A stretch of 64,000 nucleotides of DNA from the NCBI GenBank assembly GCA_002067865.1, contig MVRC01000011.1, positions 1 to 64,000 of the forward strand. The letters run 5' to 3'. This DNA comes from Methanomassiliicoccales archaeon PtaU1.Bin124 (GTDB lineage: Archaea; Thermoplasmatota; Thermoplasmata; Methanomassiliicoccales; UBA472). The translations under genes and the position numbers were made by a program. Positions 25,870 to 59,101 of the stretch are shown in pieces. The notes below the pieces were generated by a model, which was not told the origin of the DNA, did not search any database, and saw only the letters and a list, made by a program, of their open reading frames with translations. Every line of letters starts with the position of its first letter. The stretch's first letter is position 1.

Positions 25870-26778
25870 TCATTTTGCGATGGAACGCTCTGCGGCCAGG
25901 ACGGTGTTGCTCATCAGGATGACCCTTGTCATCGGCCCGACCCCGCCTGGGTTCGGCGTTATGGCGCTGGCCTTCTCCTTGACCTTATCAAAATCGACGT
26001 CCCCGACCAGCCTGTAGCCCCTCGGCGCCGTCGCATCATCGATCCGGCTGACCCCGACGTCCACGACCACCGCGCCCTCTTTCACCATGTCCGGCTTGAT
26101 GAAGTGCGCCACGCCCATGGCCGCGATGAGAATGTCCGCCTGCCTGGTGTACGAGGCCAGGTCCTTCGTGGCGGAATGACAGACCGTCACCGTGGCATTG
26201 GCGTCCTTCTGCTTCTGCATCATCAGGGCGGCCATCGGCTTGCCCACGATGTTGCTGCGGCCGCATATGACGACATGCTTTCCCTCGGTCTGGATACCGT
26301 TTCTGGCCAGCAGCACCTGCACCCCATGGGGCGTGCAGGGCAGGAAGCCTCCGGCCTCGCCGCTCAGCATCCGCCCTACGTTCATGGGATGAAGCCCGTC
26401 CACGTCCTTCTTCGGGTCTATCTTGGAGATGACCGTCTGGGGGTCGATGTGCTTTGGCAAAGGCATCTGCACCAGGATGCCGTGGATCCGAGGGTCGGCG
26501 TTCAGCTCAGCGATCAGTTCGATCAGCTCTGCTTGTGAGAACGATTCGGGCATCATCAGGGTCCTGGCGACCATGCCCAGGTCCTGTGAGTTCTTGCCCT
26601 TCATCTTGACATACTGCATGGAGGCCGGGTCCTCGCCCACGAGCACGACCGCCAATCCGGGAACGATGCCTTGGCCGCGCAGCTTCGCGATCCTTTCCCT
26701 GAGCTCTTGGCTGATGGTGCTGGCCATGAGATTTCCATCGAGGATTCTAGCGGTCATGATTGTTCCCGTGGAGTCCAT
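25870..26778 (-). CDS. folD: Methylene-THF dehydrogenase/methenyl-THF cyclohydrolase FolD
   Basis: A 302-residue bifunctional folate enzyme. The active-site Tyr/Lys are in MQYVKMKGKNSQDLGM, and PKKDVDGLHPMNVG, the NADP-binding GRSNIVGKPMA and PNPGGVGPMT motifs are all intact. It interconverts 10-formyl-, 5,10-methenyl- and 5,10-methylene-tetrahydrofolate, the middle of the folate methyl branch. ATG 26778 follows GGGAGGT by three bases; ATG 26757, seven codons later, matches many family members and is the alternative. It is divergent from fhs across about 100 bp, so the two enzymes of consecutive steps share a control region. Confidence 0.94.
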   Translation of the reverse strand: MDSTGTIMTARILDGNLMASTISQELRERIAKLRGQGIVPGLAVVLVGEDPASMQYVKMKGKNSQDLGMVARTLMMPESFSQAELIELIAELNADPRIHGILVQMPLPKHIDPQTVISKIDPKKDVDGLHPMNVGRMLSGEAGGFLPCTPHGVQVLLARNGIQTEGKHVVICGRSNIVGKPMAALMMQKQKDANATVTVCHSATKDLASYTRQADILIAAMGVAHFIKPDMVKEGAVVVDVGVSRIDDATAPRGYRLVGDVDFDKVKEKASAITPNPGGVGPMTRVILMSNTVLAAERSIAK

Positions 26779-26832
26779 CGTACCTCCCATATGTGAAGGT
26801 TGCCTTGCAGGTGTGCCAGAGGGAGCAGGAGT

Positions 26833-26841
26833 CTTTAATAA
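26833..26841 (+). promoter_or_regulatory. TATA-like element of fhs
   Basis: CTTTAATAA sits about 40 bp before ATG 26879, predicting a leader of about 15 nt that includes the GGAG ribosome site (26867-26870). It lies within the intergenic region shared with folD. Confidence 0.5.
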
Positions 26842-26878
26842 GCGAACTTTCATCATAGCGCCGAACGGAGTGCTAGGT

Positions 26879-28552
26879 ATGAGGTCGAACATCGACATCG
26901 CCCAGGACGCGAAGGCCAAACCGATAGAGGAGATCGCCGAGGTCATTGGCATCGAGAAGGACGAGCTGATCCCCTATGGCCGGTACATGGCGAAGGTGCC
27001 CCTCTCCGTTCTGAAGAGGTATGATGCCCGGCAGAACGGCAAGCTGGTCCTGACCACGGCCATCACCCCGACGCCGGCAGGCGAGGGCAAGACCGTCACC
27101 ACCATCGGACTGGTCCAGGCGCTGGGCAGGCTGGACAAGAAGGTCATGGGGGCGCTAAGGGAGCCATCGCTCGGCCCCACGTTCGGTATCAAGGGCGGTG
27201 CGACCGGGGGCGGATTCTCCCAGGTCTATCCCATGTGGGACATCGACCTCCACTTCACCGGCGACATTCATGCCGTGGCCGCGGCGCACAATCTTCTATC
27301 GGCCATACTGGAGAACCACATCTCCAGGGAGAATTCACTTCATATCGATCCGACCAGGATCATGCTCCGCAAGGCCATGGACATGAGCTGCAGGGAGCTG
27401 AGGAACATGGTCGTTGGGCTGGGCGGCAGGTCCGAGGGCGGAACGCCCCACGAGTCCGGATTCATCATCACCGCCGCATCCGAGATCAGCGCAGTGCTGG
27501 CATTGGCCACGTCCATGCCCGACCTTAAGAAGAGGCTGGGGAGGATCATCGTCGCCTACACCTACGACGGAAAGCCCGTCACGGCCGAGCAGCTGAACTG
27601 CGTCGGTGCGATGGCGCTCCTGCTGAAGGATGCGCTGAGCCCCAACCTGGTGCAGACGCTTGAAGGGGACCCGATGTTCATCCACGGCTTCCCGTTCGCC
27701 AACATCGCCCACGGCAACAATTCCATCCTGGCCACGAAGTACGCCCTCAAGCTGGCCGACATCGTGGTGACGGAGGCGGGGTTCGCCGCCGACCTGGGCG
27801 CGGAGAAGTTCTTCGACATCGTGTGCCGCGCCAACGGCCTCAGGCCCGACTGCGCGGTCATCGTATGCTCCATCCGTGCTCTGAAGATGCATGGCGGGGC
27901 CGCGTTGGACGCGGTTTGTCATGCCGATTGTCTGGCCCTCAGGAAGGGCTTTGACAACCTCGACAAGCACATCCAGAACATCCATAAGTTCGGCGTGCCG
28001 GTCGTGGTCGCGATCAACTTCTTCGACACCGATACCAGCGAGGAGATCGAGATGGTGCGCAACCATTGCGCCCAGAAGAACGTCCGCTGTGCCGTCTCCC
28101 GCGTGTTCTCCGAAGGGGGCAAGGGCGGCAAGGAGCTGGCCGAGGCGGTCCTGGACGTTCTGGAGAAGGAGAAGGCCGACTTCCGCTTCCTGTACGAGGT
28201 GGACAGGCCGCTGAAGGAGAAGATCAAGACCATCGCCACCGAGATCTACGGGGCGGCGGAGGTCATCTACGAGGGTGAGGCCGAGCGGAACATCAAGCTG
28301 ATCGAACAGTCCGGTTTCGGCGATCTGCCGATCTGCATGGCCAAGACCCAGCTCTCCATCACCGACAATCCCAAGCTCAAGGGCGCACCGCACGGATGGA
28401 CATTGAAGGTGCGTGAGGTCTTGGTCTCCGCGGGGGCCGGATTCGTGGTGCCGGTATGCGGACAGATGATGCTGATCCCCGGGCTGCCCTCTGAACCGGC
28501 GGCCGTCAAGATGGACATCGATGATAACGGCCGGATCATTGGACTGAACTGA
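26879..28552 (+). CDS. fhs: Formate-tetrahydrofolate ligase
   Basis: The 557-residue length is standard for the enzyme. The ATP-binding loop is TPTPAGEGKTVTTIGL, followed by REPSLGPTFGIKGGATGGG (substrate-binding), GDIHAVAAAHNLL, and TEAGFAADLGAEKFFDI. It makes 10-formyl-THF from formate, ATP and THF, the entry of the methyl branch of the bacterial Wood-Ljungdahl pathway. ATG 26879 has GGAG eight bases upstream. Fhs is rare in archaea, which usually use formylmethanofuran and tetrahydromethanopterin instead. Its last 17 bases overlap a convergent DUF3786 gene. Confidence 0.95.
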   Translation: MRSNIDIAQDAKAKPIEEIAEVIGIEKDELIPYGRYMAKVPLSVLKRYDARQNGKLVLTTAITPTPAGEGKTVTTIGLVQALGRLDKKVMGALREPSLGPTFGIKGGATGGGFSQVYPMWDIDLHFTGDIHAVAAAHNLLSAILENHISRENSLHIDPTRIMLRKAMDMSCRELRNMVVGLGGRSEGGTPHESGFIITAASEISAVLALATSMPDLKKRLGRIIVAYTYDGKPVTAEQLNCVGAMALLLKDALSPNLVQTLEGDPMFIHGFPFANIAHGNNSILATKYALKLADIVVTEAGFAADLGAEKFFDIVCRANGLRPDCAVIVCSIRALKMHGGAALDAVCHADCLALRKGFDNLDKHIQNIHKFGVPVVVAINFFDTDTSEEIEMVRNHCAQKNVRCAVSRVFSEGGKGGKELAEAVLDVLEKEKADFRFLYEVDRPLKEKIKTIATEIYGAAEVIYEGEAERNIKLIEQSGFGDLPICMAKTQLSITDNPKLKGAPHGWTLKVREVLVSAGAGFVVPVCGQMMLIPGLPSEPAAVKMDIDDNGRIIGLN

Positions 28553-31492: not shown

Positions 31493-31504
31493 GACGTTAA
31501 ATGA

Positions 31505-34401: not shown

Positions 34402-34802
34402 AGCTAGTGGCCCTCACCTGCTCCTTCTGCGGCTATGCCGCGACAGACCTGGCCGGTCTGCAGGGGATGAAATATTCTTCCGATGTCACGATCATCCGCC
34501 TGCCATGCACCGGCAGGCTGGACGTGAAGCACGTGCTGCAGGCGGTGCGCATGGGGGCCGACGGCGTCCTGGTGGTCGGCTGCCTGGAAGGCAACTGCAA
34601 CTATCAATATGGCAACCTGGAGGCCCGCAAGAGGGTCGAACAGGCGAAGGGCATCATGAAGGAGATCGGCCTCGAGCCGGAGCGAGTGGAGATGGTCAAT
34701 CTGGCCTCCAACCAGCCGTGGCGTTTCGTCCAGGCCGTCGAGGACATGTACGTCAAGGTCGAAAGGATGGGCCCGAGCCCGCTGAACAAGGTGAGAAGAT
34801 GA
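34398..34802 (+). CDS. mvhD: MvhD/FlpD-like [2Fe-2S] protein
   Basis: A 134-residue protein starting MKLVALTCSFCGYAATDLAG with a CxxC pair, then RLPCTGRLD and GCLEGNCNYQYGN. These are the conserved cysteines of the methyl-viologen-reducing hydrogenase delta subunit, which links an electron donor to HdrA. It overlaps the preceding hdrA-like gene by four bases and metV by ATGA. No hydrogenase subunits are adjacent, so the donor is unknown. Confidence 0.92.
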   Translation: MKLVALTCSFCGYAATDLAGLQGMKYSSDVTIIRLPCTGRLDVKHVLQAVRMGADGVLVVGCLEGNCNYQYGNLEARKRVEQAKGIMKEIGLEPERVEMVNLASNQPWRFVQAVEDMYVKVERMGPSPLNKVRR

Positions 34803-35500
34803 TCATTGCTGAACAGAAGCCGATACCGAGGATCGTCGAGATGCTGGAAGGCCACAAGAGCATGCTCGTGGTCGGTTGCCGCTCCTGCGTGGCGATATGC
34901 CTGGCCGGAGGAGAGAAGGAGGTCAGCATACTGTCCGAGGCCCTGCGCATCGAATCGGACCTGAAGGGCAATGGATGGCAGGTGGACGAGGTCACCCTGG
35001 AACGGGCCTGTGAGAAGGAATGGGTGGGCGAGATGAGGGAGAAGGTCTCCGGCCATGATGCCATCATCTCTCTGGCATGCGGGGTGGGGGCGCAGGTCAT
35101 GCAGGAGCTCTATCCCGACGTCCGGGTCCTGCCTGGACTGGACACTTCGAACATGGGCGCGCCGGAGGAGCAGGGCATCTATCTCGAGAAGTGCGGGGGA
35201 TGCGGCGATTGCGTCCTGCATCTGACCGGTGGCATCTGTCCCATTGCCAGATGCTCGAAGTCCTTGCTGAACGGCCCCTGCGGCGGGTCGCAGAACGGCA
35301 AGTGCGAGATCGACCCGGACGTGCCATGCGGATGGGACCAGATCTATCATAGCCTGGAGAGGATAGGCCGCCTCGACCTGATGGAGGTGCCCATCCCGCC
35401 CAAGGATTGGCGCAGATCCCGCAGCGGTGGACCTAGGAAGATCGTGAGGAAGGAAGCGGTCCTCACGCCTGAAGAGAAGTCGGCCAGGGGGGCTAGATGA
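34799..35500 (+). CDS. metV: MetV, zinc/iron-sulfur partner of methylene-THF reductase
   Basis: A 233-residue protein of the MetV family. It has VVGCRSCVAICLAGG and a cysteine-rich C-terminal half (KCGGCGDCVLHLTGGICP, CSKSLLNGPCGGSQNGKCE, DVPCGW). In acetogenic bacteria MetV forms a complex with MetF and conveys electrons to it, in some species together with HdrABC and MvhD. ATG 34799 overlaps the mvhD stop (ATGA), and its own stop overlaps the start of metF. Confidence 0.92.
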   Translation: MIIAEQKPIPRIVEMLEGHKSMLVVGCRSCVAICLAGGEKEVSILSEALRIESDLKGNGWQVDEVTLERACEKEWVGEMREKVSGHDAIISLACGVGAQVMQELYPDVRVLPGLDTSNMGAPEEQGIYLEKCGGCGDCVLHLTGGICPIARCSKSLLNGPCGGSQNGKCEIDPDVPCGWDQIYHSLERIGRLDLMEVPIPPKDWRRSRSGGPRKIVRKEAVLTPEEKSARGAR

Positions 35501-36408
35501 TGAGCAATCTCCAATCGGTGCTCAGCTCTGGTCGAATGGCCGTGACGGCGGAGATAGGTCCGCCGAAGTCTGCCGATGCAGAGACAGTGCGCAAACTGGC
35601 GCGCCACTTGAAGGGCAGCGCCGATGCGTTCAACCTCACGGACAACCAGACCGCCATGGTCCGGCTTTCCAGCATCGCCTCCGGGGTCGTCTGTTTACAG
35701 GAAGGGGTCGAACCGATCGTCCAGATGACCTGCAGGGACCGGAACCGCATAGCCATGCAATCCGACGCCCTCGGAGCCAGCGCGCTGGGCATACGGAACA
35801 TCCTGTGCCTCAGCGGCGATCATCAGTGCTTCGGCAACCAGAAGGAGGCGAAGAACGTCTATGATGTCGACTCGATCGGTCAGCTGATGCTTCTGAGGAA
35901 GATGAGGGATGAAGGCCAGGTCTGGGGCGGGGACAAGCTGGAGAAGGCGCCGGAACTGTTCCTCGGAGCCGCGGCCAATCCCTTCGCCGACCCGTTCGAG
36001 CACAGGGTGGTTCGCTTGGCCAAGAAGCTGGCCGCAGGGGCGGATTTCATCCAGACCCAATCCATATACGATGTCGATAGGTTCGAACGCTGGATGTCCC
36101 AGGTGCGGGCCAGAGGATTGCACGAGAAGGTCCACATCATCGCCGGCGTCATGCCGTTGAAGTCCCACAAGGTGGCCCTTTACATGAAGAACAAGGTGTC
36201 CGGAATGATCGTCCCGGACCACATCATCGACCGCATGAAGAACGCCGCCGACCCTAAGGAGGAAGGCATCAGGATGTGCGTAGAGCAGATCAAGCACCTG
36301 CAGAGCATCGAAGGCGTCCATGGGATCCATGTGATGGCGGTGGCTTGGGAGGAGAAGGTACCCGTGATCGTAAAAGAGGCCGGATTGTTGCCTCGTCCGG
36401 TCGTATGA
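35497..36408 (+). CDS. metF: 5,10-methylene-tetrahydrofolate reductase MetF
   Basis: A 303-residue TIM-barrel flavoprotein. The N-terminal MAVTAEIGPPKSADAE holds the catalytic Glu, and NILCLSGDHQC, GAAANPFADP, GADFIQTQSIYDVDRFERWM and IIAGVMPLKSH are all family motifs. It reduces methylene-THF to methyl-THF. No NADH-binding extension is seen; with MetV next door, electrons probably come through the Hdr/MvhD-like partners. It is the last gene of the operon beginning at 31505. Confidence 0.94.
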   Translation: MMSNLQSVLSSGRMAVTAEIGPPKSADAETVRKLARHLKGSADAFNLTDNQTAMVRLSSIASGVVCLQEGVEPIVQMTCRDRNRIAMQSDALGASALGIRNILCLSGDHQCFGNQKEAKNVYDVDSIGQLMLLRKMRDEGQVWGGDKLEKAPELFLGAAANPFADPFEHRVVRLAKKLAAGADFIQTQSIYDVDRFERWMSQVRARGLHEKVHIIAGVMPLKSHKVALYMKNKVSGMIVPDHIIDRMKNAADPKEEGIRMCVEQIKHLQSIEGVHGIHVMAVAWEEKVPVIVKEAGLLPRPVV

Positions 36409-36589
36409 TGCCTCATTGTGTCAAATGTCAAGAGTGTCTGGGTGGTATCTGAATAAGCAGATATTCCAAGGGAAATCATTTCCACCTATGATGACTCTAT
36501 CGTATCCCATTAAATACTAGTGACTTCATAGCAAACATTATCCCGCGGCTGCAAGGACGTGGGAAATAACCAACGTAGGTAGTTTAGTA
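36409..36589. promoter_or_regulatory. Intergenic region with TATA box for the small zinc protein
   Basis: The 181-bp gap has no gene. ATTAAATACT at 36509-36518 is a plausible TATA box, giving a leader of about 50 nt before ATG 36590. A weak GTAGGT ribosome site lies in the last 15 bases. Confidence 0.4.
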
Positions 36590-36769: not shown

Positions 36770-36790
36770 TAACGTCAGTCTCTAATAACT

Positions 36791-36847
36791 TGGGGCGCAA
36801 GCCCCATGAAATCCCTTTTACGATTTAACCCATCGTTCGTTTTTTTT
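36791..36847 (+). terminator. Hairpin and T tract after the small zinc protein
   Basis: TGGGGC and GCCCCA (36791-36796 and 36801-36806) enclose a GCAA tetraloop, and a run of eight T's lies at 36840-36847. The T run is 33 bp beyond the hairpin, so the two may act separately; the region separates two convergent genes. Confidence 0.55.
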
Positions 36848-36895
36848 GTTTCCTTTGAAAACAGCGTGAGCCCTGGATAAAAATGAGAAAATGGT

Positions 36896-37672
36896 TTATG
36901 CGCGCAGATAGTCGTCGCAGTAGAGCTTCTCGTTGCGCAATACCTGGCCGGTCTTGACGGTCTCCATCAGCGAAGCGTCCTCCGGATCCAGTATGGCGGC
37001 GCTCAGTCCCGCCCCCATAAGCATCGCGAGGTAGGTGCGGTTCACCAGCGGCCGGTCCTTCGCCCCGTTCGAGACGTTGCTCAAACCCACGACGGTACGG
37101 ATGGGCGGGTCGTTCAGCGATTGGAACATCTGGATGGCCTTGATGACCTTCATCCCCTGGTCCTGGGCGGCCCTGGTCGGCAGCACCAGCGGGTCGAGCA
37201 GCAGGCGGTCGGGCATGATCTCATGCTCCATGGCGGTGGTGATCATGATCATGGCCAGCTCGGCCCTCTTCTCGGAATCGTTGGGTATGCCCTTCTCGTC
37301 CATGGTGAGGCAGATGATGTCAGCGCCGAACTCGCGGCACAACGGCAGGAACGCATCCAGGCGCTTCTTCTCTGCGGTGGTGGAGTTCATGATGACCTTG
37401 TTCCTGGCGGCCTTGAGGCCAGCGGTCATGGTCTTGGCGCCGGGCGTGTCGAGGCATAATGTGGCGTCGGTCACGTCCTGTACGGTCCGCACCAGCCAGT
37501 CCATCGCCGCCGGACCGTCCTCGCGTCCCGGGCCAACATTGACGTCCAGCGCCTGGGCGCCGCATTCCAGCTGCCTGATGGCATGGTCCTGGATCCACTT
37601 GGCGTCCCGCTTGTCGATCGCCTTGCCGACAGAGGTGAACAGACCGTTGATGCGCTCACTGATGACGTACAT
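36896..37672 (-). CDS. acsE: Methyl-THF:corrinoid iron-sulfur protein methyltransferase AcsE
   Basis: A 258-residue TIM-barrel pterin-binding protein. CGAQALDVNVGPGREDGPAAMDWLV is the pterin-binding signature with the key Asp and Asn, and VIMNSTTAEKKR, CLTMDEKGIPND and LSNVSNGAKDR follow the family. It moves the methyl group of methyl-THF to the cobalt of AcsCD, the joining step of the two branches. It lies alone, away from acsC/D. A TATA-like CTTTTTATCC lies about 35 bp upstream and GAGG precedes the ATG by six bases. Confidence 0.93.
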   Translation of the reverse strand: MYVISERINGLFTSVGKAIDKRDAKWIQDHAIRQLECGAQALDVNVGPGREDGPAAMDWLVRTVQDVTDATLCLDTPGAKTMTAGLKAARNKVIMNSTTAEKKRLDAFLPLCREFGADIICLTMDEKGIPNDSEKRAELAMIMITTAMEHEIMPDRLLLDPLVLPTRAAQDQGMKVIKAIQMFQSLNDPPIRTVVGLSNVSNGAKDRPLVNRTYLAMLMGAGLSAAILDPEDASLMETVKTGQVLRNEKLYCDDYLRA

Positions 37673-44421: not shown

Positions 44422-46368
44422 ATGAGCTTCACGGTCAAGTTCTTCCCCAAGAACGTGGACATCACCCTGGAAGATAACGTCACCGTACTGGAAGCTGCAT
44501 TCCGGGCCGGGGTGGAGATAAACAGCGCGTGCGGGGGGAAGGGCACCTGCGGCCGCTGCCGCGTCCTGGTCGAGGGCAAGGTGGAATCGGCCCCGTCCAA
44601 GCAGATCTCACAGGAGGAGTGGGATAGGGGTTGGCGGCTGGCCTGCATGACCACCATCTTTGGCGACGCGGCCGTCTTCGTTCCCGAGGAGTCCCGCGTC
44701 GAGGACCTCCAGATCTACGAAAGCTTCACCACCGGCGATGTCGAGGAGCTTTCGCCCATCTCCACCGCCACCTATCTGGAGATTCCCGTGCCGAACCTGG
44801 AGAACAATCTCGGCGACAAGGAACGCCTGGAGGCATGCCTGCGTCTTTCCGAGGGCTCCCTGGACATCCCGATCGAGATGCTCAGGGACCTGCCCAAGGT
44901 GGTGCGGGACAGCGGATGGCGTGTCACATCGGTCCTGGACCGCTCGGGAGATCGGCCCCAGCTCATCGATGTGAACAACTGGGACACCTCCGGCCGCAAC
45001 TTCGGCATAGCGCTGGACATCGGGACCACCACCGTCGTGCTGGCATTGGTAGACCTGCAGACGGGCAAGACCATCGCCCAGGCATCGGACTACAACAAGC
45101 AGATCATGTGCGGCGAGGACGTGCTGGCCAGGATCGCATTCGCCGAGGATGGGGGTCTGGAGAGGCTCCGCCAGCTGATCCTGGAGAGCATCGATTACCT
45201 CATCTCCCAGGTCGTCGTCCTATCGGACGTATGCAGGCCCACCGTGAAGAAGGTGTGCAGGGAGGAGGTCACGGCCATGTCCATCGCCGGCAACACCACG
45301 ATGATCCATCTGCTGCTCGGCCTCCATCCCAAACAGATCAGGTACGAGCCATATGTCTCAGTGGCCAATCTGCCTCCGGTCTATCGGGCCAAGGACCTGG
45401 ACATCAAGATCCATCCTCAGGCGCCCATCTACATCGTCCCGGGAAGGGCCAGCTATGTGGGCGGGGACATCGTGGCGGACGTTCTGGCGAGCGGCCTGCA
45501 CAAGAGGGACGAAACGGCCTTGCTGATCGATGTGGGCACCAACGGAGAGGTGGTGCTGGGCAATAAGGACTGGACCGTATCCTGTTCCTGCTCGGCCGGG
45601 CCGGCCTTCGAAGGAGGAGAGGTCGCTTCTGGTATGAGGGCCATGACCGGGGCCATCGAGAAGGTCACCATCGACGCTAAGTTCGAACCTAGCTACCAGA
45701 CGATCAGGAACGACAAGCCGCGCGGGCTGTGCGGTTCCGGTCTGATCGATCTGGTCTCGGAGATGTTCCGGGTGGGCCTGGTAGACAAGAAGGGCCATAT
45801 CCAGGACGTGGGCAGCCAAAGGGTCCGCTGGAACGGGGACTCCCGCGAGTACGTGGTCGTCTGGGCCAAGGACACCAAGGAGACGGCCGTCTCCCTGGCC
45901 ATGAAGGCTAAGAGCGGGGTCTGGGGGGCCAAGACCGTGCAGGGCAACGACATCGTCATCACCGACGGGGACATCGCCAACATCATCCGCACCAAGGCCG
46001 CCATGTTCGCTGCGGCAGAGGTCCTGCTGGACAGCGTCAAGGTAAACTTCAATGACCTGGACCGGGTTTACATCGCCGGCGGCTTCGGCAACTACATCGA
46101 TGTGGAGAAGGCGATCAACATCGGGCTGCTGCCTGACATCCCCCGTGATAGGTTCGTGTTCCTGGGAAATGCGGCGCTGGGCGGAGCATGGTCCGCATTG
46201 CTTTCAAGGGAGAGGCGGGAGGAAGCGAAGAGGGTCTACCGTTCCATGACATATCTGGAGCTGACGACCAACCAGGGGTTCTTCGACCACTTCACATCGG
46301 CGCTCTTCCTGCCCCACACGGAGATCGAGAAGTTCCCCAGCGTCATGGGAAGACGAAAAAATGGCTGA
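44422..46368 (+). CDS. acsV: Reductive activator of corrinoid protein (RACo, AcsV-like)
   Basis: A 648-residue protein. The N-terminal [2Fe-2S] ferredoxin has Cys 37, 43, 46 and 75 (ACGGKGTCGRCRV). A linker region follows, then an ASKHA-type ATPase domain (FGIALDIGTTTVVLALVDL, MSIAGNTTMIHLLLG, LLIDVGTNGEVVLG, CGSGLIDLVSEM, YIAGGFGNYIDVEKAI). This matches the acetogen protein that reduces inactive Co(II) corrinoid of AcsCD to Co(I) using ATP. It has its own promoter. It is the only corrinoid activator visible in the window. Confidence 0.92.
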   Translation: MSFTVKFFPKNVDITLEDNVTVLEAAFRAGVEINSACGGKGTCGRCRVLVEGKVESAPSKQISQEEWDRGWRLACMTTIFGDAAVFVPEESRVEDLQIYESFTTGDVEELSPISTATYLEIPVPNLENNLGDKERLEACLRLSEGSLDIPIEMLRDLPKVVRDSGWRVTSVLDRSGDRPQLIDVNNWDTSGRNFGIALDIGTTTVVLALVDLQTGKTIAQASDYNKQIMCGEDVLARIAFAEDGGLERLRQLILESIDYLISQVVVLSDVCRPTVKKVCREEVTAMSIAGNTTMIHLLLGLHPKQIRYEPYVSVANLPPVYRAKDLDIKIHPQAPIYIVPGRASYVGGDIVADVLASGLHKRDETALLIDVGTNGEVVLGNKDWTVSCSCSAGPAFEGGEVASGMRAMTGAIEKVTIDAKFEPSYQTIRNDKPRGLCGSGLIDLVSEMFRVGLVDKKGHIQDVGSQRVRWNGDSREYVVVWAKDTKETAVSLAMKAKSGVWGAKTVQGNDIVITDGDIANIIRTKAAMFAAAEVLLDSVKVNFNDLDRVYIAGGFGNYIDVEKAINIGLLPDIPRDRFVFLGNAALGGAWSALLSRERREEAKRVYRSMTYLELTTNQGFFDHFTSALFLPHTEIEKFPSVMGRRKNG

Positions 46369-48129: not shown

Positions 48130-49152
48130 ATGGATTGGAACTGCGCCCCCACCTGCATCGGCTCCCTGCCACACACCGACCCAGCAAAAGCGGTCGATCT
48201 GGCGCTGGAGCAACTGAGGGAGATCCCATACTGGCCTCAGATGCCGGCCTTGGGCTTCGGGGAGAACATGTATGCGCAGTTTTCCACCAGTCTTCCGGGC
48301 GTCCGCATCGACTCAGAACAGAAGAAGGTCACGGTCGATCTGAACGACTACGACCCGGAGGAGTTCTACACTGCGGTGGTGGAGGATGACATCGACCACT
48401 TTACCTATCCTAAGGAGAACTTCCGCGGCTTCTATGAACTGATGGGAAGACAGCTAGGTCCAGGTGTGAAGGCCGTGAAAGGTCAGGTGACAGGCCCCAT
48501 CAGCACTGGATTGCAGGTCATAGACCAGAACGGCAAGTCCGCACTGTACGATGACGCCTACGGGGAGATCATCCGCAAGAACCTCAACCTCTGCGCCAGA
48601 TGGCAGGAGAAGAAGCTGAAGGAGAAGCATGACAAGGTCATCCTCTTCCTGGACGAACCGTCGCTATCCCTCGTCGGCACTCCGTTCGCGCCCATCTCCC
48701 AGACGAACGTCGTGATGTGGATCGACGAGGTGCTGGAGAACATCCATTGCATCAAGGGGCTGCACTGCTGCGGCAATACAGACTGGCCCATGGTCCTCTC
48801 CACCAACATCGACCTGCTCTCGTTCGATGCGTACGGCTATGCCTTCTCCATCTCATTGTTCCCAAAGGAGGTCCAGGCGTTCCTAGAGAAAGGGGGCACG
48901 CTGGCCTGGGGCATGGTCCCGAACATGGACAGCCGATTGGAGAAGGAAAGCTCGTTCTCATTGCTAGCGCTGCTGGAGAAGGGGATCTCGGACCTGGTGG
49001 CGAAGGGCGTGGACAAGGAAAGGCTGCTGCACCAGTCGATCATCACCCCCCAGTGCGGCCTGGGCGGACTGGACGAAGGGCAGGCCTTGAACGTCTTCCA
49101 GCTCCTGAACCAGCTCACCGTCCGCTTCCGCCGGGCGCACTCGCTGGAGTGA
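48130..49152 (+). CDS. Folate-independent (core) methionine synthase-like protein
   Basis: A 340-residue protein resembling the C-terminal catalytic barrel of cobalamin-independent methionine synthase, without its folate-binding N-terminal half. Zinc-ligand candidates are H212 and C214 (GLHCCGNTDWP) and C309 (TPQCGLGG); the usual Glu ligand seems replaced by D233 (FDAYGY). The N-terminal GSLPHTDPAKAVDLAL and GQVTGPIST motifs are typical of the family. Core enzymes of the MesB or MesC type are proposed to take methyl groups from the corrinoid iron-sulfur protein. Its stop overlaps the CooC-like start, linking it to the CODH/ACS genes. A TTAAAT element 30 bp upstream predicts a leaderless message. 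Confidence 0.78.
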   Translation: MDWNCAPTCIGSLPHTDPAKAVDLALEQLREIPYWPQMPALGFGENMYAQFSTSLPGVRIDSEQKKVTVDLNDYDPEEFYTAVVEDDIDHFTYPKENFRGFYELMGRQLGPGVKAVKGQVTGPISTGLQVIDQNGKSALYDDAYGEIIRKNLNLCARWQEKKLKEKHDKVILFLDEPSLSLVGTPFAPISQTNVVMWIDEVLENIHCIKGLHCCGNTDWPMVLSTNIDLLSFDAYGYAFSISLFPKEVQAFLEKGGTLAWGMVPNMDSRLEKESSFSLLALLEKGISDLVAKGVDKERLLHQSIITPQCGLGGLDEGQALNVFQLLNQLTVRFRRAHSLE

Positions 49153-49907
49153 TGCCGTTGGCGTACATCGTGGCCGTGGCGGGGAAGGGCGGGGTGGGAA
49201 AGAGCACCATCTCCGCTCTGCTGGTCCGGGCGCTGGCAGAAAGGGCCAAGGCGGTCGTGCTGGCCATCGATGCCGATCCGAACATCAATCTGGGGGAGAA
49301 GCTCGGCGCCCCTGCTGGCAAGACCATCGGCGAGCTGCGGGAGGACCTGCTGCGCCACGCGGACTCCCTGCAGGCCGGTGCCAGCAAGCATGAGACGGTG
49401 AGGTATCAGATGGCATTGGCCAAGGTGGAAGGTCAGGGATTCGACCTGCTCACCATGGGCCGGCCGGAAGGGCCTGGGTGCTACTGCTACATCAACAACA
49501 TTTTGCGCACGTTCATCGACGAGGCGGTGGACCATTACCCATATGTCATCATCGACAACGAGGCGGGCATGGAGCACCTGTCCCGCCGCACCACCAAGCG
49601 CATGGACACGCTGCTGCTCGTCTCCGACCCGACCTCCTTGGGCGTAAGGACCGCCATCCGCATCCTTGCCTTGGCGGACGAGATGGAGATCAAGGTAGGG
49701 CGGAAGGTGCTGGTGATGAATCGGGCGGAGAGACTTCCGGAAGGGGTGATGGAGATGGTGGGCACGGCCGGTTTCGACGATGTCGTCCTTTTGCCGTACG
49801 ATGATGAGGTGGACGATCTCATCTCGAAGGGCAGGCCCCTCACGGAGCTCACCAACGACGACCCGCTGTTCCGAAAGGTGATGGGACTGGCATACTCCCT
49901 TCGCTGA
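49152..49907 (+). CDS. cooC: CooC/AcsF-type nickel-insertion ATPase
   Basis: A 251-residue MinD-type ATPase. The deviant Walker A is AGKGGVGKSTISALLV, the switch region IDADPNINLGEKLG, and GPGCYCYINNI contains the CxC motif (CYC) through which CooC dimers bind nickel; VIIDNEAGMEHLSRRTT is the Walker B/family signature. It inserts nickel into CO dehydrogenase or acetyl-CoA synthase. The start ATG shares one base with the previous stop codon. Whether it serves the CODH or ACS part is not decided by sequence. Confidence 0.92.
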   Translation: MPLAYIVAVAGKGGVGKSTISALLVRALAERAKAVVLAIDADPNINLGEKLGAPAGKTIGELREDLLRHADSLQAGASKHETVRYQMALAKVEGQGFDLLTMGRPEGPGCYCYINNILRTFIDEAVDHYPYVIIDNEAGMEHLSRRTTKRMDTLLLVSDPTSLGVRTAIRILALADEMEIKVGRKVLVMNRAERLPEGVMEMVGTAGFDDVVLLPYDDEVDDLISKGRPLTELTNDDPLFRKVMGLAYSLR

Positions 49908-52724: not shown

Positions 52725-54047
52725 TCACAGACCCTTAAGGAACTTCGGCAAACCGGATGATTCTTTGGGACCGACGATGGCCTTCAGCCCGGTCGTTTCC
52801 TGGAGCTTGGCGGCCATGCGGGCCACCATGCCGGGCACGATGATCGTTCCGGTCTTGCTCTTCGTCTTCGCACCAGACTTCTCCAGCGCCTTGTTGACAC
52901 CATCGGCGGTCAGCTTCCCGGCGGCATATGCGGTCAGCACCGACAGGCCTTCCGTGTCGACCACCTGCAGCCAGACCGGGATCTTGCTCTTCTCGGCATC
53001 GGCCAGCACAGTGAAGTAGGTCAGCGAGAAATTGGTGGTGAACATGATCGGCGCCTTCTCGTCCGGGTTGTTGACTGGATATAGGTCTGGTTTGACCTGG
53101 ATCGGCACCTGCGGGTCGGTGAATATGTTCTGCCTCAGGACGAACAGGGGCAGGGCATGCTCAGGCTTCAGTTTGTCGAACGAGACGATGCTGCCGTACT
53201 TCATGGTGGCGATGAGGCCGTATTGCAGGGCATCGTCGCCCTGTGCCTGGACCAGGATGGGATAGCCGAGCCCGCGGAACGTTCGCTTCACGCTCAGTCG
53301 GCGCACCAGGGTCGATCTCTCCAGCAGGTCCTTGAGGTTGGCGGGGTCGAAGTCCAGTACGATGTCCTCCACGCCGGAGGCCTTCACCTTGGCGACCAGG
53401 TCGGCCAGTTCGTTCAATCCCTTGTCCTCGTAGACGACCAATGGAAGGGCCAGTTCCTTGGCGACGGCCGACATCTCGGCGAAATTATTGGAATCTGCCC
53501 CGTGGACGAGAGGGCGTCTGGCCGCGATTGGCTTCACCGCATCTTTCATGGCCGCAGGGTCGTGGCAGAACACGAGCAAGGGCATCTCGGTGGATCCCGA
53601 GGCGACCGATACGGCCTTGGCGAAACGGGCCGGGTCGTTGCTGACGTACCTCACACCGATCATATCCAACGACATGATCTGGCCGACCCTCTCGAACTTC
53701 ATCTTGTTGTAGGAGATGATGGTCGATTCGATGTCGGCATCGGACATGGAGTCGTCCACTTCCACACAATACCTGGTGGGGTGGAAGAATTTCTTCTCGT
53801 GCCGGTACAGCTCGGTCTCGTCGCCGACCTCAAAGGCGCGGGAGTTGGAGCCGATCTTCACCAGACGGATCGGAGGGGCCGATGACGCGGACAATGCCGC
53901 CTTACCGGCATCCGAAACGTACGGGCAGTCCTCCAGCTTGGCCTTGTTGTTGGCCAGCTGCATGGCGAACGCCAGGCAGGTAGGGTTCTTGCACTCTCCG
54001 CAGTTCTTCTTCGGTAGGTGCTTGAAAATCTCGATGGCGGTCGGCAT
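52725..54047 (-). CDS. acsC: Corrinoid iron-sulfur protein large subunit AcsC (CdhE)
   Basis: A 440-residue protein with an N-terminal [4Fe-4S] motif, Cys 16, 19, 24 and 41 (KKNCGECKNPTCLAFAM), a central TIM-barrel and a C-terminal cobalamin-binding domain (TGTIIVPGMVARMAAKLQETTG). It holds the methyl-carrying corrinoid and its reductive cluster. ATG 54047 has a strong GGAGGT seven bases upstream. It follows acsD with one base between stop and start, and ends the acsAB-acsD-acsC operon. Confidence 0.94.
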   Translation of the reverse strand: MPTAIEIFKHLPKKNCGECKNPTCLAFAMQLANNKAKLEDCPYVSDAGKAALSASSAPPIRLVKIGSNSRAFEVGDETELYRHEKKFFHPTRYCVEVDDSMSDADIESTIISYNKMKFERVGQIMSLDMIGVRYVSNDPARFAKAVSVASGSTEMPLLVFCHDPAAMKDAVKPIAARRPLVHGADSNNFAEMSAVAKELALPLVVYEDKGLNELADLVAKVKASGVEDIVLDFDPANLKDLLERSTLVRRLSVKRTFRGLGYPILVQAQGDDALQYGLIATMKYGSIVSFDKLKPEHALPLFVLRQNIFTDPQVPIQVKPDLYPVNNPDEKAPIMFTTNFSLTYFTVLADAEKSKIPVWLQVVDTEGLSVLTAYAAGKLTADGVNKALEKSGAKTKSKTGTIIVPGMVARMAAKLQETTGLKAIVGPKESSGLPKFLKGL

Positions 54048-54048
54048 C

Positions 54049-55005
54049 TCACGCACCTCCCCTGAGGCCCTCGATGGCCCTCTTCGCCTCAGCTGCGGCG
54101 CCAGGGTGGCGCATGATAAGGATGTCCGCTCCGGACAATATGGCGGCCAGGGCGGTGGTGGCCTCCCACCACTTCCCCCTCTCGTTCCTGTCGCCCCAAT
54201 CGGCCACATCGTCGGTCGCCTCGCGGCACTTCCAGGCGCCGGTGCAGTCGCACAGCATGGGCAGCTGCAGCATGCCATCGCCGGCCAATGCGGCCAGGCG
54301 GATCCGTTCATTCACCGAATAGGAATATTCCAGTCCCATGCCCAGCGGGGCCATCAGCGGGTCCATGACGATGCTCTCCTTCCTCACGCCGAAGTCGGTG
54401 AGGAGGATCGTGATCTGCTTCGCCAGGTTGATGTCGAGGTTGGAGAACGCCACGATGGCATGGTTGTTGGCCATGCCGGCCGCGGCGATGGACTTGTAAA
54501 CGCCTTCCTCCGCCTGGCCGAGCAGCAGGCGTTCCTTGGGGGCGGCATTGCTGACGGCCTCCATGGTCTTGGCGTCCTTCTCCTCCTGGCCGCAGCCGTA
54601 GACGATGATCGGCACGCTGACGGCCTTCAGGACCTTCAGAACAGTAAGTGCGGCATCCTGCGGGCTGACGTTGCTCTCCTCTGGATTGGTCGATGCCAGA
54701 CGCAGGCAGATGAGGTCGGCCTTGAAATTCTCCACCCAGACCTTGGCCCACTCCGCCACGTCGCTGGTCGCTTCGCCAAAGAGCGCCCTGACCTGCTCAG
54801 GGACCTCCCCCGGCATGTCCGTGACCTCTCCGGCGATCCTGACCCGGTTGGGCGCCAGGCCTTCATAGCCGAGGAACGGCATGGCGTTCTCCCCGCCCAC
54901 CGTCACGATGGCAGAGCGCGTTCCGCCGGTGGAGGGTTCAGCGCCCAGATTGACAGCGTTCACCTTGCCAGACCATTTGTCCTTTGGTAGGGGGACCTCG
55001 ACCAT
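54049..55005 (-). CDS. acsD: Corrinoid iron-sulfur protein small subunit AcsD (CdhD)
   Basis: A 318-residue TIM-barrel protein. Signatures are GGTRSAIVTVGGENAMPFLGYEG, VENFKADLICLRLASTNPEE, CGQEEKDAKTMEAV and MDPLMAPLGMGLEYSYSVNERIRLAAL. It forms a heterodimer with AcsC and interacts with AcsE during methyl transfer. It lies between acsAB and acsC, 22 bases after acsAB. Length is close to bacterial AcsD; archaeal CdhD proteins are longer. Confidence 0.94.
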   Translation of the reverse strand: MVEVPLPKDKWSGKVNAVNLGAEPSTGGTRSAIVTVGGENAMPFLGYEGLAPNRVRIAGEVTDMPGEVPEQVRALFGEATSDVAEWAKVWVENFKADLICLRLASTNPEESNVSPQDAALTVLKVLKAVSVPIIVYGCGQEEKDAKTMEAVSNAAPKERLLLGQAEEGVYKSIAAAGMANNHAIVAFSNLDINLAKQITILLTDFGVRKESIVMDPLMAPLGMGLEYSYSVNERIRLAALAGDGMLQLPMLCDCTGAWKCREATDDVADWGDRNERGKWWEATTALAAILSGADILIMRHPGAAAEAKRAIEGLRGGA

Positions 55006-55027: not shown

Positions 55028-58000
55028 TCATGAGAGCAGCGGGGCCATGCGCATGGCGGGATGGTCCACCTGGGCCATCCATTCCATCAGGCCCTGCGCG
55101 TCGGTCGTGATGGTCTCGTCGGCTATCTTGTCGACGAAGCCCTGTTCGCCCAGCTCCTCGGCGCGGCGGTTCAGTTCGTCCCGCAGCGCTTCCTTGAGGT
55201 CCTTGGGCATCCAGACGATGCGCAGGAATCCGCCGTCCGCTGAGATGAATTTCCTACTAGTTAGATACTTCCTACCCACACCGATGAAGCCTGGCGTCTG
55301 CTTGCCGCCACCGATGTTGCCAGCTAGGGTGGAGAACTTCATGCCGATGGGCGTCATGCCGCCGAACTCGCGGTTCACCACGATCACGCCCTGCATGTCC
55401 GCCGTCATGGCCACGATGCATTCGAAGCAGCCGCAGGACGTCATCGGATCATCCATCATGGTGTAAGCGTTGAAGCGTTCGATCTTGCCCCGGGTCAGCT
55501 CGCGGATGGCGTTGTTGACGCCTTCCCACTGTCCCTTGGCCTCATCGATCACCGCCCCCTTCTGGATGGGCTGGTTCGGGCCGGACGGGACGATCTCCTT
55601 GCCGGTCTTGGCATCGAGCCAGTTGATGGCACCGCACAATCCCAGGCGCTCAGGCGTAACGATGCATACATGGTCCGGTGCGAACGACTGGCACATGAGG
55701 CAGGAATAGAAAGTGTCGACCGCCTCATCGGTCAGATTGGCCATGCGTGCGTCGCGCTTTGCGTACGATTCCATGGCCCCTGGCAGATGCCGCTTGACCT
55801 CCGCCCCGTCGGTGACTATGGTCACCTGGACGCGGGAGACGATGTTGCCGAACTCCTCCTTGATCTTGCCGATGAGTATGTCTCCCAGGTGCTTCAGCTT
55901 GAAACCGGATTTAACGGCGTTCTTGCTGATGCGCACCCAGATGATGTTGCGCTGGCCGGTATGCCACACGCCCTCAGCGAAATTGAGGAACAGATGGATG
56001 CGGCGCTCGAGGACTGATTCAAAGTCCTCCTGCATCTTCTTGCCGTAGACATCCACCAGTATGGCCAGTGGAGTGGTCCATCCTTCCTGCATCTCGTCGA
56101 TGTCCTTGCCGATGACGGTGATGCGGCCGTCCTCCACCTCGTTCTCGTTGCGGAGACGAAGCAGTTCGAATGCCATTGTCTTCGCCGCGCCACCCGCTTC
56201 CAGATACGTCTCTGGCTTGCGGATGGTCTCCCCCTCGAATGCCGGACCGAATGCTACCGGCAGGTCGATGGTGGCGCCGCTGACCTTGATCTCCCTCGCT
56301 TCCAGCGCGGTCTGGAACATCTTGCCCATGTCCAGCTGCGAGATGAACTTGTCCGGGATGCCCTCGGCATCGATGTCGGCGATGATCGGTGAGCCGTTCA
56401 GCATGACCGCCATCTCCGCCCCTGCTTTAATGGCGTCCATCGGCCCGAAGTGCAGCACGAAGACCTTGGGGCGCTTGGCCATGTAACCGGCCAGTCTTTC
56501 CCGGTCCCCCCTCTGCACGCCGCCGAAGCTCAATGCCGCCCTGATGGCAAAGTTCAGGCCGTGGATGACCTGGGTGAACTCTCCGACAGGGTAGAGCATA
56601 AGGTCCAGGCCCATCTGGATGCCGCTGTCCTTCAGCTGCTTGATCGTATCGAACGAGGCGATGATCAGCATGCCCTTGCTCTGGCATTCCCTGACGATCT
56701 TCACCAGCTTGGCCGGGTCCGACGCGGTGCCGACCAGCACTGCAGCGCCAGGTATCGTATCATCGACGAAGGCCAGTCCCAGCTGGCGCAACACACGGTC
56801 GGGTATGAAGCCGCAGTAATCCGTGCCTTCGTACGGCTTGGCGCCGTCCAGGTACTTCAGGGCCTCGATGATCTCGGCGGCCACCATGACCGCCTCCCCT
56901 GCGGCGAGGGCGTTCTCGTACGTCCTCTCCTCCCGTATGCGGCCCCGGACCCTGCCCAGCACCGCAGGCAGGTCGCCCAGGTCGTGCACCTCGGCGCCAT
57001 CCCAGGCATAGATGGAAGGCAGTTCGTACGCGGTCTCGGGATACTCGATCTTCTGCTGGTATCCGTACTTCTCGATCGCCACCGAAAGGATCTGGTCCGC
57101 GAAACCGGTGGCGATGAGGCCTCCCTCGATGGCCATGCGATAGAGCTGTTCCTGGGTCAGTTTCTGGTCGCTCGTTTCGACCTGGTAAGAATTGGACCAG
57201 CCCAGCTTCCAGCGCCGCCGTTCGATCTCATTCAGCAGCTTGGCCGCCGCCTTCTCCGGGTCCGATTCGAAGATGAAATGACCGCCGAACACGTCCTGGG
57301 CGGAGCGTTCCAGCACTTCCGTGACCAGCGTGGAGCCGTAGATGTAGTTGATGGTGCCGACGTGAACTGGCAGTCCCAGCGCCACGCACCACGTGCCGAT
57401 GGAGACGGCCTTCTCATGGTTCGCTTCCGGTGCGGACGCGGCGAACGGAATGCCGCTGATGTCCGTGCCCAGCCTCTTGGCCAATTCAGTGGCGAGGTTG
57501 GCGGCGCGGCTGTTATCCACGCAAGAGCCCATGTGCCATATCGGGGGCAGCGCTACCGCATTGGCCTCTCCCAGCTCCTTCAGGAACGAACGCAGGCCCG
57601 GTCCGGCCAGCTCGACGGCCGATGGCGCCAGCATGCCCTGCTTGGCGAACGCTCCGGCGGAACAGCCGGTGGTGAGGATGAGTATGTCCTTGGCCAGCAG
57701 TGCCTTGGCGATCATGATGTGGTTGATGTCGTGAACGGCCCGCTGATTGTTGCACCCTGCCATGAGCGCTATGCCCTTGATCTGGCCGGACGACAGCGCC
57801 TTGACGATGAACTGCAACGGGTCGACCGGCGACAGCTTGGCGCACAGGTCCTTGATCTGTTCCAGGCTGAATCCCGCCACGACGTCGTACTTGACGTCGG
57901 GCACCTTCACCTTGGCCTTCTCCCTCTTCTTGTAGGCGTTGATTGCCAGGCGGATGATGGCCTTGGCGGACTCCTCGGCCTCCTCCTCTCTGAACTGCAC

Positions 58001-59101
58001 GTGCGTATCGTAGGGCAGGCGGACATTGGTCATGGTGGTGACCATCTCGGTGTGCATGCAGGAGCATAGCTCGGAGAGAGAGGGCATGATGCACTGGTAA
58101 TCGGCCACGATCAGATCGACCGCTCCGGTCGCCAGCGCCAGTTCCTGGGCGGCGAAGTTGGATGCCAGGGCGACGCCCTTGCGCATCAGCGTCTCGTTGC
58201 CGGTGCAGCAGATGCCCACGATGTTGATACCGGACGCTCCGACCTCCCTGGCCTCGTCCTCCAGGCTTCTGGCCACATCGACGATGATGTCGCTCAGGAC
58301 CGGGTTATGGCCGTGGATGGCGATGTTCACCGCATCTGGTTTGATCGCCCCCAGGTTGGCGTAGGTGTGGACCAGCCGGGGCGTGCCGAACAGCACGTCG
58401 GAAAGGTCGGTGGAGATCTGCATGCCGTCGTAATCGGCCAGGGCGCAGCTGATGCCCCCGAAGAGGAGCGGCAGCGGGTCTGCATCGCAACCCAGGGAGG
58501 TGCGGTGCATGACATCGGATATCGACTTCTCGATCGATTCCGGCACCAGGCCGAGCGCTTTGAACAGCGCCAGGCGGGCCGGTGTGATGGTGGACGAGAG
58601 GAAGCTCGGCCCGACCTTGTCATGGCGGGAGTAATCCTCGTAAACATAGTTCAGAAGGGTCCGGGCCATATCGTCCTTGGAACGGCCTTCGGTCTGCTCG
58701 CCCAGGCGCTGCAGGACGGCACGCAGCTTGAGCTCGTCCTTGACGCGGTAGCTGGACGATTTTCCGTCAAGCGCCTTCTGGACCGTGTCGGCGATGTGCC
58801 TGCCGTGACCGGAGTGGGCCGCGGCGCCGCCGGCGATATGGCGGATGAGGTTGCGGGCGACGATGGTGTAGTCCCTGGCCCCGCATATTCCCTTGTCCGG
58901 CTTTCCGCCGTATGGATTGATGCGGCACGGACCCTGCAGACAGTTGTTGCAGCAGATGCCCAGCTCTCCATATCCGCACTGCGGCTGCATCTGCTCGAAG
59001 CGGTCCCAGGCGGTCTCCATGTTCGTCAGCACGGCTATATCCATGCAGCTCTGTGCCCCTGGGTCGCAGGTGCGTTCCGGACTGCTCTTCTCTTCGGACA
59101 T
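55028..59101 (-). CDS. acsAB: Fused CO dehydrogenase/acetyl-CoA synthase (AcsA-AcsB in one protein)
   Basis: A 1357-residue continuous reading frame. Residues 1-635 are a full CooS/AcsA-type CO dehydrogenase. The B/D-cluster cysteines are C42, C50, C51, C54, C59 and C73; the C-cluster ligands are H263, C298 or C299, C337, C450, C480 and C527. From about residue 640 to the end it is a full bacterial-type AcsB including the N-terminal domain absent from archaeal CdhC. A-cluster cysteines are C1134, C1137, C1146, C1156, C1223 and C1225, with the same spacing as in the Moorella enzyme. The two halves join at about 630-650 without a linker. It would reduce CO2 to CO and form acetyl-CoA in one chain. 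The fusion is the odd point; in known acetogens these are separate subunits. Confidence 0.95.
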   Translation of the reverse strand: MSEEKSSPERTCDPGAQSCMDIAVLTNMETAWDRFEQMQPQCGYGELGICCNNCLQGPCRINPYGGKPDKGICGARDYTIVARNLIRHIAGGAAAHSGHGRHIADTVQKALDGKSSSYRVKDELKLRAVLQRLGEQTEGRSKDDMARTLLNYVYEDYSRHDKVGPSFLSSTITPARLALFKALGLVPESIEKSISDVMHRTSLGCDADPLPLLFGGISCALADYDGMQISTDLSDVLFGTPRLVHTYANLGAIKPDAVNIAIHGHNPVLSDIIVDVARSLEDEAREVGASGINIVGICCTGNETLMRKGVALASNFAAQELALATGAVDLIVADYQCIMPSLSELCSCMHTEMVTTMTNVRLPYDTHVQFREEEAEESAKAIIRLAINAYKKREKAKVKVPDVKYDVVAGFSLEQIKDLCAKLSPVDPLQFIVKALSSGQIKGIALMAGCNNQRAVHDINHIMIAKALLAKDILILTTGCSAGAFAKQGMLAPSAVELAGPGLRSFLKELGEANAVALPPIWHMGSCVDNSRAANLATELAKRLGTDISGIPFAASAPEANHEKAVSIGTWCVALGLPVHVGTINYIYGSTLVTEVLERSAQDVFGGHFIFESDPEKAAAKLLNEIERRRWKLGWSNSYQVETSDQKLTQEQLYRMAIEGGLIATGFADQILSVAIEKYGYQQKIEYPETAYELPSIYAWDGAEVHDLGDLPAVLGRVRGRIREERTYENALAAGEAVMVAAEIIEALKYLDGAKPYEGTDYCGFIPDRVLRQLGLAFVDDTIPGAAVLVGTASDPAKLVKIVRECQSKGMLIIASFDTIKQLKDSGIQMGLDLMLYPVGEFTQVIHGLNFAIRAALSFGGVQRGDRERLAGYMAKRPKVFVLHFGPMDAIKAGAEMAVMLNGSPIIADIDAEGIPDKFISQLDMGKMFQTALEAREIKVSGATIDLPVAFGPAFEGETIRKPETYLEAGGAAKTMAFELLRLRNENEVEDGRITVIGKDIDEMQEGWTTPLAILVDVYGKKMQEDFESVLERRIHLFLNFAEGVWHTGQRNIIWVRISKNAVKSGFKLKHLGDILIGKIKEEFGNIVSRVQVTIVTDGAEVKRHLPGAMESYAKRDARMANLTDEAVDTFYSCLMCQSFAPDHVCIVTPERLGLCGAINWLDAKTGKEIVPSGPNQPIQKGAVIDEAKGQWEGVNNAIRELTRGKIERFNAYTMMDDPMTSCGCFECIVAMTADMQGVIVVNREFGGMTPIGMKFSTLAGNIGGGKQTPGFIGVGRKYLTSRKFISADGGFLRIVWMPKDLKEALRDELNRRAEELGEQGFVDKIADETITTDAQGLMEWMAQVDHPAMRMAPLLS

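What the first reader, a model, noticed from the sequence alone, without database searches (positions are those of the whole stretch)
55028..59101. CO dehydrogenase and acetyl-CoA synthase fused in one 1357-residue protein
One uninterrupted frame encodes complete CooS/AcsA and complete bacterial-type AcsB. All CODH B/C/D-cluster ligands and all six A-cluster cysteines are present. Every A-cluster cysteine is at the Moorella AcsB position plus 628 (506, 509, 518, 528, 595, 597 become 1134, 1137, 1146, 1156, 1223, 1225), so neither half is eroded. In characterised enzymes AcsA and AcsB are separate chains joined by a gas tunnel through the AcsB N-terminal domain. A covalent link, in an archaeal genome, would fix stoichiometry and perhaps the tunnel geometry.
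Basis: partly seen in the sequence, partly recalled or inferred. Interest (0 to 1): 0.9.

Follow-up and report, generated by a model that had tools for sequence, protein, structure and literature searches.

The report
One-chain CO dehydrogenase/acetyl-CoA synthase in archaea
In a methane-making archaeon the two enzymes that turn CO2 into acetyl-CoA, separate proteins in every studied organism, are one continuous protein; the same fusion occurs across many related archaea, and in several of them the first half has since decayed or been deleted.

Summary
The fusion is real. The minus strand 59101..55028 encodes one 1357-residue protein: a complete CooS/AcsA-type CO dehydrogenase (1-634), a linker of about 16 residues, and a complete three-domain bacterial-type AcsB (651-1357). 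Every B-, C-, D- and A-cluster ligand is present. It is not an assembly accident. At least 23 sampled genomes in eight families of the phylum carry the same single-frame fusion, two of them in single-contig chromosomes, with both halves under purifying selection. It lies in a conserved locus with CoFeSP, CooC and a RACo-type activator, and the window also holds a tetrahydrofolate Wood-Ljungdahl methyl branch. The host carries mcrA and falls in the Methanomassiliicoccales.

Two things were not foreseen. First, the CODH half has repeatedly been lost within this order: one relative has a full-length fusion with most CODH ligands gone, others keep a ligand-free remnant before an intact AcsB, and some, including a same-genus single-contig genome, keep AcsB alone with no CODH at all. 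Second, related families have separate, coupled acsA and acsB, so fusion needs little more than loss of a stop codon.

Tunnel geometry and stoichiometry remain inference. I found no report of the fusion in papers searched, but Adam et al. 2018 could not be read.

The parts
55028..59101 (-). Fused AcsA-AcsB (CODH/ACS), 1357 aa, one frame
57200..59101 (-). CODH (CooS/AcsA-type) half, residues 1-634
   Evidence: Prismane 49-616; TIGR01702 over cut-off; aligns to CODH-II and AcsA structures
58883..58978 (-). D- and B-cluster cysteine region, residues 42-73
   Evidence: motif positions
57152..57199 (-). Junction/linker, about residues 635-650
   Evidence: linker comparison; pLDDT below 50 at 638-645 and 639-645
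55031..57151 (-). AcsB half, residues 651-1357, with the N-terminal A1 domain
55634..55702 (-). A-cluster motif C-x2-C-x8-C-x9-C, residues 1134-1156
55427..55435 (-). A-cluster Cys-Gly-Cys, residues 1223-1225
54049..55005 (-). AcsD/CdhD, CoFeSP small subunit
   Evidence: PF03599; NF003376 over cut-off
52725..54050 (-). AcsC/CdhE, CoFeSP large subunit (the open frame runs on to 54311; the true start is probably near 54050)
   Evidence: PF04060 + PF03599; NF003195 over cut-off
49143..49907 (+). CooC-like P-loop ATPase, probable Ni insertion (start estimated)
   Evidence: CbiA/ParA family; conserved in the locus
48130..49152 (+). Conserved 340-aa protein of unknown family, next to CooC in most Methanomassiliicoccales loci examined
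44422..46368 (+). RACo-type corrinoid activator (AcsV-like)
   Evidence: RACo domains; AcsV hit below its cut-off
36896..37672 (-). AcsE, methyl-H4F:CoFeSP methyltransferase
   Evidence: PF00809; best PDB matches are AcsE, 2e7f and 1f6y, E about 1e-72
35497..36408 (+). MetF, methylene-H4F reductase
34505..35500 (+). MetV-like, methylene-H4F reductase C-terminal family
   Evidence: PF12225
31505..34401 (+). Two HdrA-like proteins upstream of MetV/MetF
26423..28552 (+). Fhs, formate-H4F ligase (open frame; the domain begins about 26879)
25870..26952 (-). FolD, methylene-H4F dehydrogenase/cyclohydrolase
   Evidence: PF00763 + PF02882

Best explanation
A genuine single-chain CODH/ACS. The CODH half dimerises, reduces CO2 to CO at its C-cluster and takes electrons through the B and D clusters. 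CO passes through a tunnel into the AcsB A1 domain and reaches the A-cluster, where it is joined to a methyl group delivered by CoFeSP from methyl-tetrahydrofolate and released with CoA as acetyl-CoA. The enzyme therefore works like the Moorella/Carboxydothermus A2B2 complex, with the CODH C-terminus continuing through a short flexible linker into the first helix of A1, the domain that already docks on CODH. The linker ties together two parts that stay docked through the cycle and leaves the mobile A2/A3 domains free. SHOWN: the continuous frame, all ligands, conserved alcove residues, purifying selection, the gene neighbourhood, and conservation in many genomes. INFERRED: activity, dimerisation, a tunnel within the fused chain, 1:1 stoichiometry, and the direction (acetyl-CoA synthesis).
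For: Frame and ligands. At least 23 genomes in eight families have the same architecture in one frame: f1, f3, f5, f8, f20, f37, f56, f61. Two are single-contig chromosomes, CP070748.1 and CP070732.1. dN/dS in intact fusions is about 0.07-0.21 for the CODH half and 0.02-0.16 for ACS. The A-cluster alcove/gate positions G148, V152, F232, R250 and F515 are invariant in all rows (roles from PMC11321310 and PMC12289521). The locus carries CoFeSP, CooC and RACo, and the window also holds AcsE, MetF, MetV, Fhs and FolD. PMC11474084 states that the Moorella CODH binds ACS through N- and C-terminal extensions and that only A1 contacts CODH, so the fusion point is sterically plausible. Both halves score higher against Moorella/Carboxydothermus (class 1) than against C. 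autoethanogenum (class 2): CODH 656/631 vs 495 bits, ACS 810/794 vs 669 bits.
Against: No protein or activity data. AlphaFold2 did not resolve how the halves pack. The window protein lacks about 16 residues of the N-terminal extension of AcsA, which also helps bind ACS in Moorella. The CODH half scores slightly better with monofunctional CODH-II (690 bits) than with AcsA (656). The genome also has a separate CooS (39% identical) that could supply CO. Relatives live without the CODH half, so linkage is dispensable.
Confidence: 0.82

Rival explanations
1. The fused enzyme runs mainly in reverse. It splits acetyl-CoA into a methyl group (for methionine and other C1 needs) and CO, which the attached CODH oxidises. 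In relatives without CODH, AcsB alone does the methyl-supply part, as in Dehalococcoides.
For: At least seven AcsB-bearing relatives at 79-99% completeness encode no CODH: G002, G026, G029, G045, G047, G067, G078. All retain the A-cluster where it was checked. Dehalococcoides AcsB without CODH cleaves acetyl-CoA for methionine methyl groups (PMC7005905).
Against: The window genome keeps a complete H4F methyl branch with Fhs, FolD, MetF and AcsE and an intact CODH under selection, which fits net synthesis at least as well.
Confidence: 0.35
2. The CODH half is already losing its catalytic role in this genome, with CO made by the stand-alone CooS on contig C6; the fused CODH is becoming a structural cap, as in its relatives.
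For: Repeated decay in the order: G008 full length with most ligands lost, G011 K563E, G007 K563R, and about 250-320-residue remnants in genus g2, G024, G054 and G079. A separate CooS is present in G000.
Against: All 14 ligand and catalytic positions are intact in G000, and G000/G005 dN/dS in the CODH half is 0.19, near the 0.16 of ACS.
Confidence: 0.1
3. Assembly or gene-calling artefact: two adjacent genes joined by a sequencing error.
For: Two same-class families have adjacent, separate acsA/acsB, in one of them with a 4-nt ATGA overlap, and in G345 the two genes lie in one frame divided by a single TGA. One error could therefore mimic a fusion.
Against: The same fusion occurs in at least 23 genomes at 55-74% identity, in different families and on single-contig chromosomes. 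Linkers differ between families, and truncated relatives still carry the CODH C-terminus in frame with AcsB.
Confidence: 0.01

Closest known systems
Bacterial CODH/ACS class 1 (Moorella thermoacetica, Carboxydothermus hydrogenoformans AcsA2AcsB2)
   Same: CODH core with B/C/D clusters; three-domain AcsB with A1; six A-cluster cysteines; alcove residues; CoFeSP, CooC and AcsE partners
   Different: AcsA and AcsB are one polypeptide; the N-terminal extension of AcsA is mostly absent; gate residue Met151 is Phe and Trp154 is Asp in the intact fused proteins
Bacterial CODH/ACS class 2 (Clostridium autoethanogenum)
   Same: Same domains and chemistry
   Different: Lower similarity in both halves; separate chains and a different CODH-ACS interface (PMC11474084)
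Archaeal ACDS complex (CdhA/B/C, Methanosarcina)
   Same: Same overall reactions in a methanogen
   Different: Archaeal CdhC lacks A1 and CdhA carries extra E/F clusters and an epsilon subunit; CdhA model score 52.6 bits against a cut-off of 781. PMC11474084 says A1 is missing in all methanogens; this mcrA-bearing genome has it.
CODH-less AcsB of Dehalococcoides
   Same: Parallels the lone-AcsB relatives (G002 and others), not the window protein
   Different: The window protein keeps an intact CODH; the relatives checked keep MetF, which Dehalococcoides lacks

Membership tests
Bacterial-type (class 1) CODH/ACS | CooS-type CODH with D, B and C cluster ligands | tested here: met
   14 of 14 positions; TIGR01702 over cut-off
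Bacterial-type (class 1) CODH/ACS | Three-domain AcsB including A1 | tested here: met
   Aligns end to end with 7zkj_B and 1oao_C; CODH_A_N 671-751
Bacterial-type (class 1) CODH/ACS | Six A-cluster cysteines | tested here: met
Bacterial-type (class 1) CODH/ACS | CODH and ACS are separate chains in an A2B2 complex | tested here: not met
   Single 1357-aa frame
Bacterial-type (class 1) CODH/ACS | N- and C-terminal CODH extensions that bind ACS | tested here: inconclusive
   The C-terminal extension is replaced by the linker; the N-terminus is about 16 residues short of AcsA
Bacterial-type (class 1) CODH/ACS | Continuous CO tunnel from C- to A-cluster | not testable with these tools
   Alcove residues conserved, but no confident model of the packing
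Archaeal ACDS (Cdh-type) | ACS without A1; CdhA with E/F clusters | tested here: not met
   A1 present; cdhA model 52.6 of 781 bits
Monofunctional CooS | CODH not joined to ACS | tested here: not met

The most novel reading that the evidence does not exclude
An ancient single-chain CODH/ACS, formed early in the Thermoplasmatota from translationally coupled acsA-acsB, that has repeatedly turned into CODH-less acetyl-CoA synthases in methanogens. In some lineages the C-terminal part of the CODH survives, stripped of all metal ligands, as a structural cap on the ACS A1 domain, sealing or gating the orphaned CO tunnel.
Probability: 0.4. Interest if true: 0.85.

Novelty: new variant of a known kind. 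Interest (0 to 1): 0.7.

Why it matters
CODH/ACS is a key enzyme of the acetyl-CoA pathway and a textbook case of gas channelling between two proteins. A natural covalent fusion gives a one-chain enzyme for testing how far CO channelling depends on assembly, and a ready-made scaffold for CO2-fixation engineering. The homologous series (coupled genes, intact fusion, full-length fusion with dead CODH, fusion with a ligand-free remnant, AcsB alone) lets one ask directly what ACS does once its CO source is gone. It also contradicts the statement that the A1 domain is missing in all methanogens (PMC11474084).

Tried and rejected
Artefact or frameshift: rejected. A fusion limited to this genome: rejected. 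Archaeal ACDS membership: rejected. Structure prediction to test tunnel packing: residues 158-1357 (pLDDT 70, pTM 0.45) and 1-957 (pLDDT 70, pTM 0.58) were too weak to use. Gate residue F151 as evidence of CODH-coupled selection: F in 31/31 proteins with intact CODH against 12/26 without, but only 2 independent pairs, so suggestive only. Single fusion versus several: not resolved. In the CODH tree, fused forms lie on both deepest branches and separate forms on one of them; the AcsB tree is affected by long branches among CODH-less forms. Prior reports: ten literature searches found none, and three relevant papers that could be searched in full (Inoue 2019, a 2026 CODH survey, a 2022 Thermoplasmatota genome paper) showed no description of it; Adam et al. 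2018 is not held.
Full report
OBSERVATION. The minus strand of the window, 59101 to 55028, encodes one 1357-residue protein (P0001) from ATG to stop, without internal stops or ambiguous bases. Pfam finds Prismane (49-616), CODH_A_N (671-751), CdhC (947-1102) and ACS_CODH_B_C (1113-1356). In the PDB, residues 6-638 align with CODH/AcsA chains and 651-1356 with AcsB chains over nearly their full lengths. Two different NCBIfam equivalogs each pass their cut-off, and no single family spans both halves. All CODH B/C/D ligands and the two acid-base residues checked (His93, Lys563 in CODH-II numbering) are present.

NOT AN ARTEFACT. Searches of related genomes return the same single open frame of about 1360-1390 aa in the same order (G005, G007, G010, G023, G025, G028; 67-74% identity), in 11 genomes of family f8 and two of f20 in the same class, and in three genomes of other classes of the phylum (G350, G372, G400). 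Named records include the single-contig chromosomes CP070748.1 and CP070732.1. Junction sequences differ in length and letters between families while the flanking helices are conserved. Both halves are under purifying selection in intact fusions: dN/dS about 0.07-0.21 for CODH and 0.02-0.16 for ACS where dS is measurable.

SURROUNDINGS. The locus order is conserved in the order: carboxylase genes / M16 peptidase / (CODH-)ACS-AcsD-AcsC / CooC / unknown 340-aa protein / RACo. The window also holds FolD, Fhs, two HdrA-like proteins, MetV-like, MetF and AcsE, so the tetrahydrofolate methyl branch and the carbonyl branch lie within about 35 kb. The genome has mcrA and no methenyl-H4MPT cyclohydrolase. 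It also has a separate CooS and two hybrid-cluster-protein genes.

EROSION OF THE CODH HALF. Within the same order the locus takes five forms. (a) Intact fusion. (b) Full-length fusion with a dead CODH: G008, 1364 aa, the D- and B-cluster cysteines and several C-cluster ligands gone, all six A-cluster cysteines kept. G011 has Lys563 to Glu and G007 has Lys563 to Arg. (c) Proteins of about 940-1020 aa: genus g2, G024, G054 and G079. Profile comparison ties their N-terminal part to the CODH C-terminal part (g2: probability 96.5%, E 8e-10, CODH 533-642; G024: 94.8%; G054/G079: 80%, CODH 409-500). In genus g2 and G024 the CODH C-terminal helix and linker are still in frame with AcsB. All metal ligands of the CODH are gone. 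(d) AcsB alone at the same locus: same-genus G002, and G004, G006 and family f6. In G002 (one contig, 99% complete) and six other AcsB-bearing genomes (79-99% complete) no CODH of any kind was found, only hybrid-cluster proteins or nothing. (e) No AcsB match. On a tree of five neighbouring proteins G000 (fused) and G002 (AcsB alone) are sisters (97/96), as are G010 (fused) and G006 (AcsB alone) (100/100). Five changes are the minimum; if re-gain is excluded, six losses. Remnant N-terminal parts have dN/dS of 0.18-0.43, relaxed but below 1, so some structural role is likely.

ORIGIN. Families f19 and f23 and G366 have separate, adjacent acsA and acsB. In f19 they overlap by ATGA, and in G345 they lie in one frame with a single TGA between. 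The tail of separate AcsA resembles the first part of the linker in f20 and G400. Loss of one stop is thus a sufficient route. The CODH tree does not decide between one early fusion followed by splits and two or more fusions.

HOW IT MOST LIKELY WORKS. Like the class-1 bacterial complex: CO2 to CO at the C-cluster, CO through a tunnel to A1 and the A-cluster, methyl from CoFeSP, acetyl-CoA out. In Moorella the CODH C-terminal extension binds A1 and only A1 touches CODH (PMC11474084). In C. hydrogenoformans the A1-CODH interface does not change between conformations while A2/A3 move (PMC12289521). A covalent link between the CODH C-terminus and A1 therefore joins two parts that stay together and need not hinder the cycle. 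The alcove residues are conserved; the tunnel plug Met151 is Phe in every protein with intact CODH (31 of 31) and Leu or Ile in 14 of 26 without it, but this is not phylogenetically independent enough to count as proof. Direction (synthesis) is inferred from the complete methyl branch; cleavage of acetyl-CoA for methyl groups, known from Dehalococcoides (PMC7005905), is the main rival and probably applies to the AcsB-only relatives.

NOVELTY. Each half is a member of a known family; the single-chain architecture, its spread in the Thermoplasmatota and the decay series were not found in the papers searched. Adam et al. 2018, the most likely place for an earlier mention, could not be read. I therefore call it a new variant of a known kind.

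Noticed in passing
L032:8967-11153 (G002), also G026, G029, G045, G047, G067, G078: Methanomassiliicoccales genomes with AcsB (CoFeSP beside it where the locus was read) but no CODH anywhere: acetyl-CoA synthase without a CO source, as in Dehalococcoides.
   Followed up: partly
L033:9334-12408, L034:10032-13007, L036:8782-11694, L037:2070-4958, L050:8744-11755: AcsB proteins carrying a ligand-free remnant of the CODH half, still under (relaxed) purifying selection; possible structural relic domain.
   Followed up: partly
window 48130-49152 (+): 340-aa protein next to CooC in most Methanomassiliicoccales ACS loci examined, with no Pfam, NCBIfam or PDB match; holds an HCCGN motif. Candidate corrinoid methyltransferase or ACS accessory factor.
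   Followed up: partly
window 25870-37672: Bacterial-type tetrahydrofolate methyl branch (FolD, Fhs, HdrA-like x2, MetV, MetF, AcsE) in an mcrA-bearing archaeon, close to the CODH/ACS locus.
   Followed up: partly
L091:667-5316 (G345): CODH and AcsB in the same frame separated by one TGA codon; either coupled genes just before fusion, a fresh split, or readthrough.
   Followed up: no
window 50403-52667 (-): 754-aa protein with an N-terminal membrane segment between AcsC and CooC, also at this place in G003 (58% identity); function unknown.
   Followed up: no
G000:C11:76833-78101 and G000:C13:195516-196784: Two hybrid-cluster-protein genes in the host genome, outside the window.
   Followed up: no
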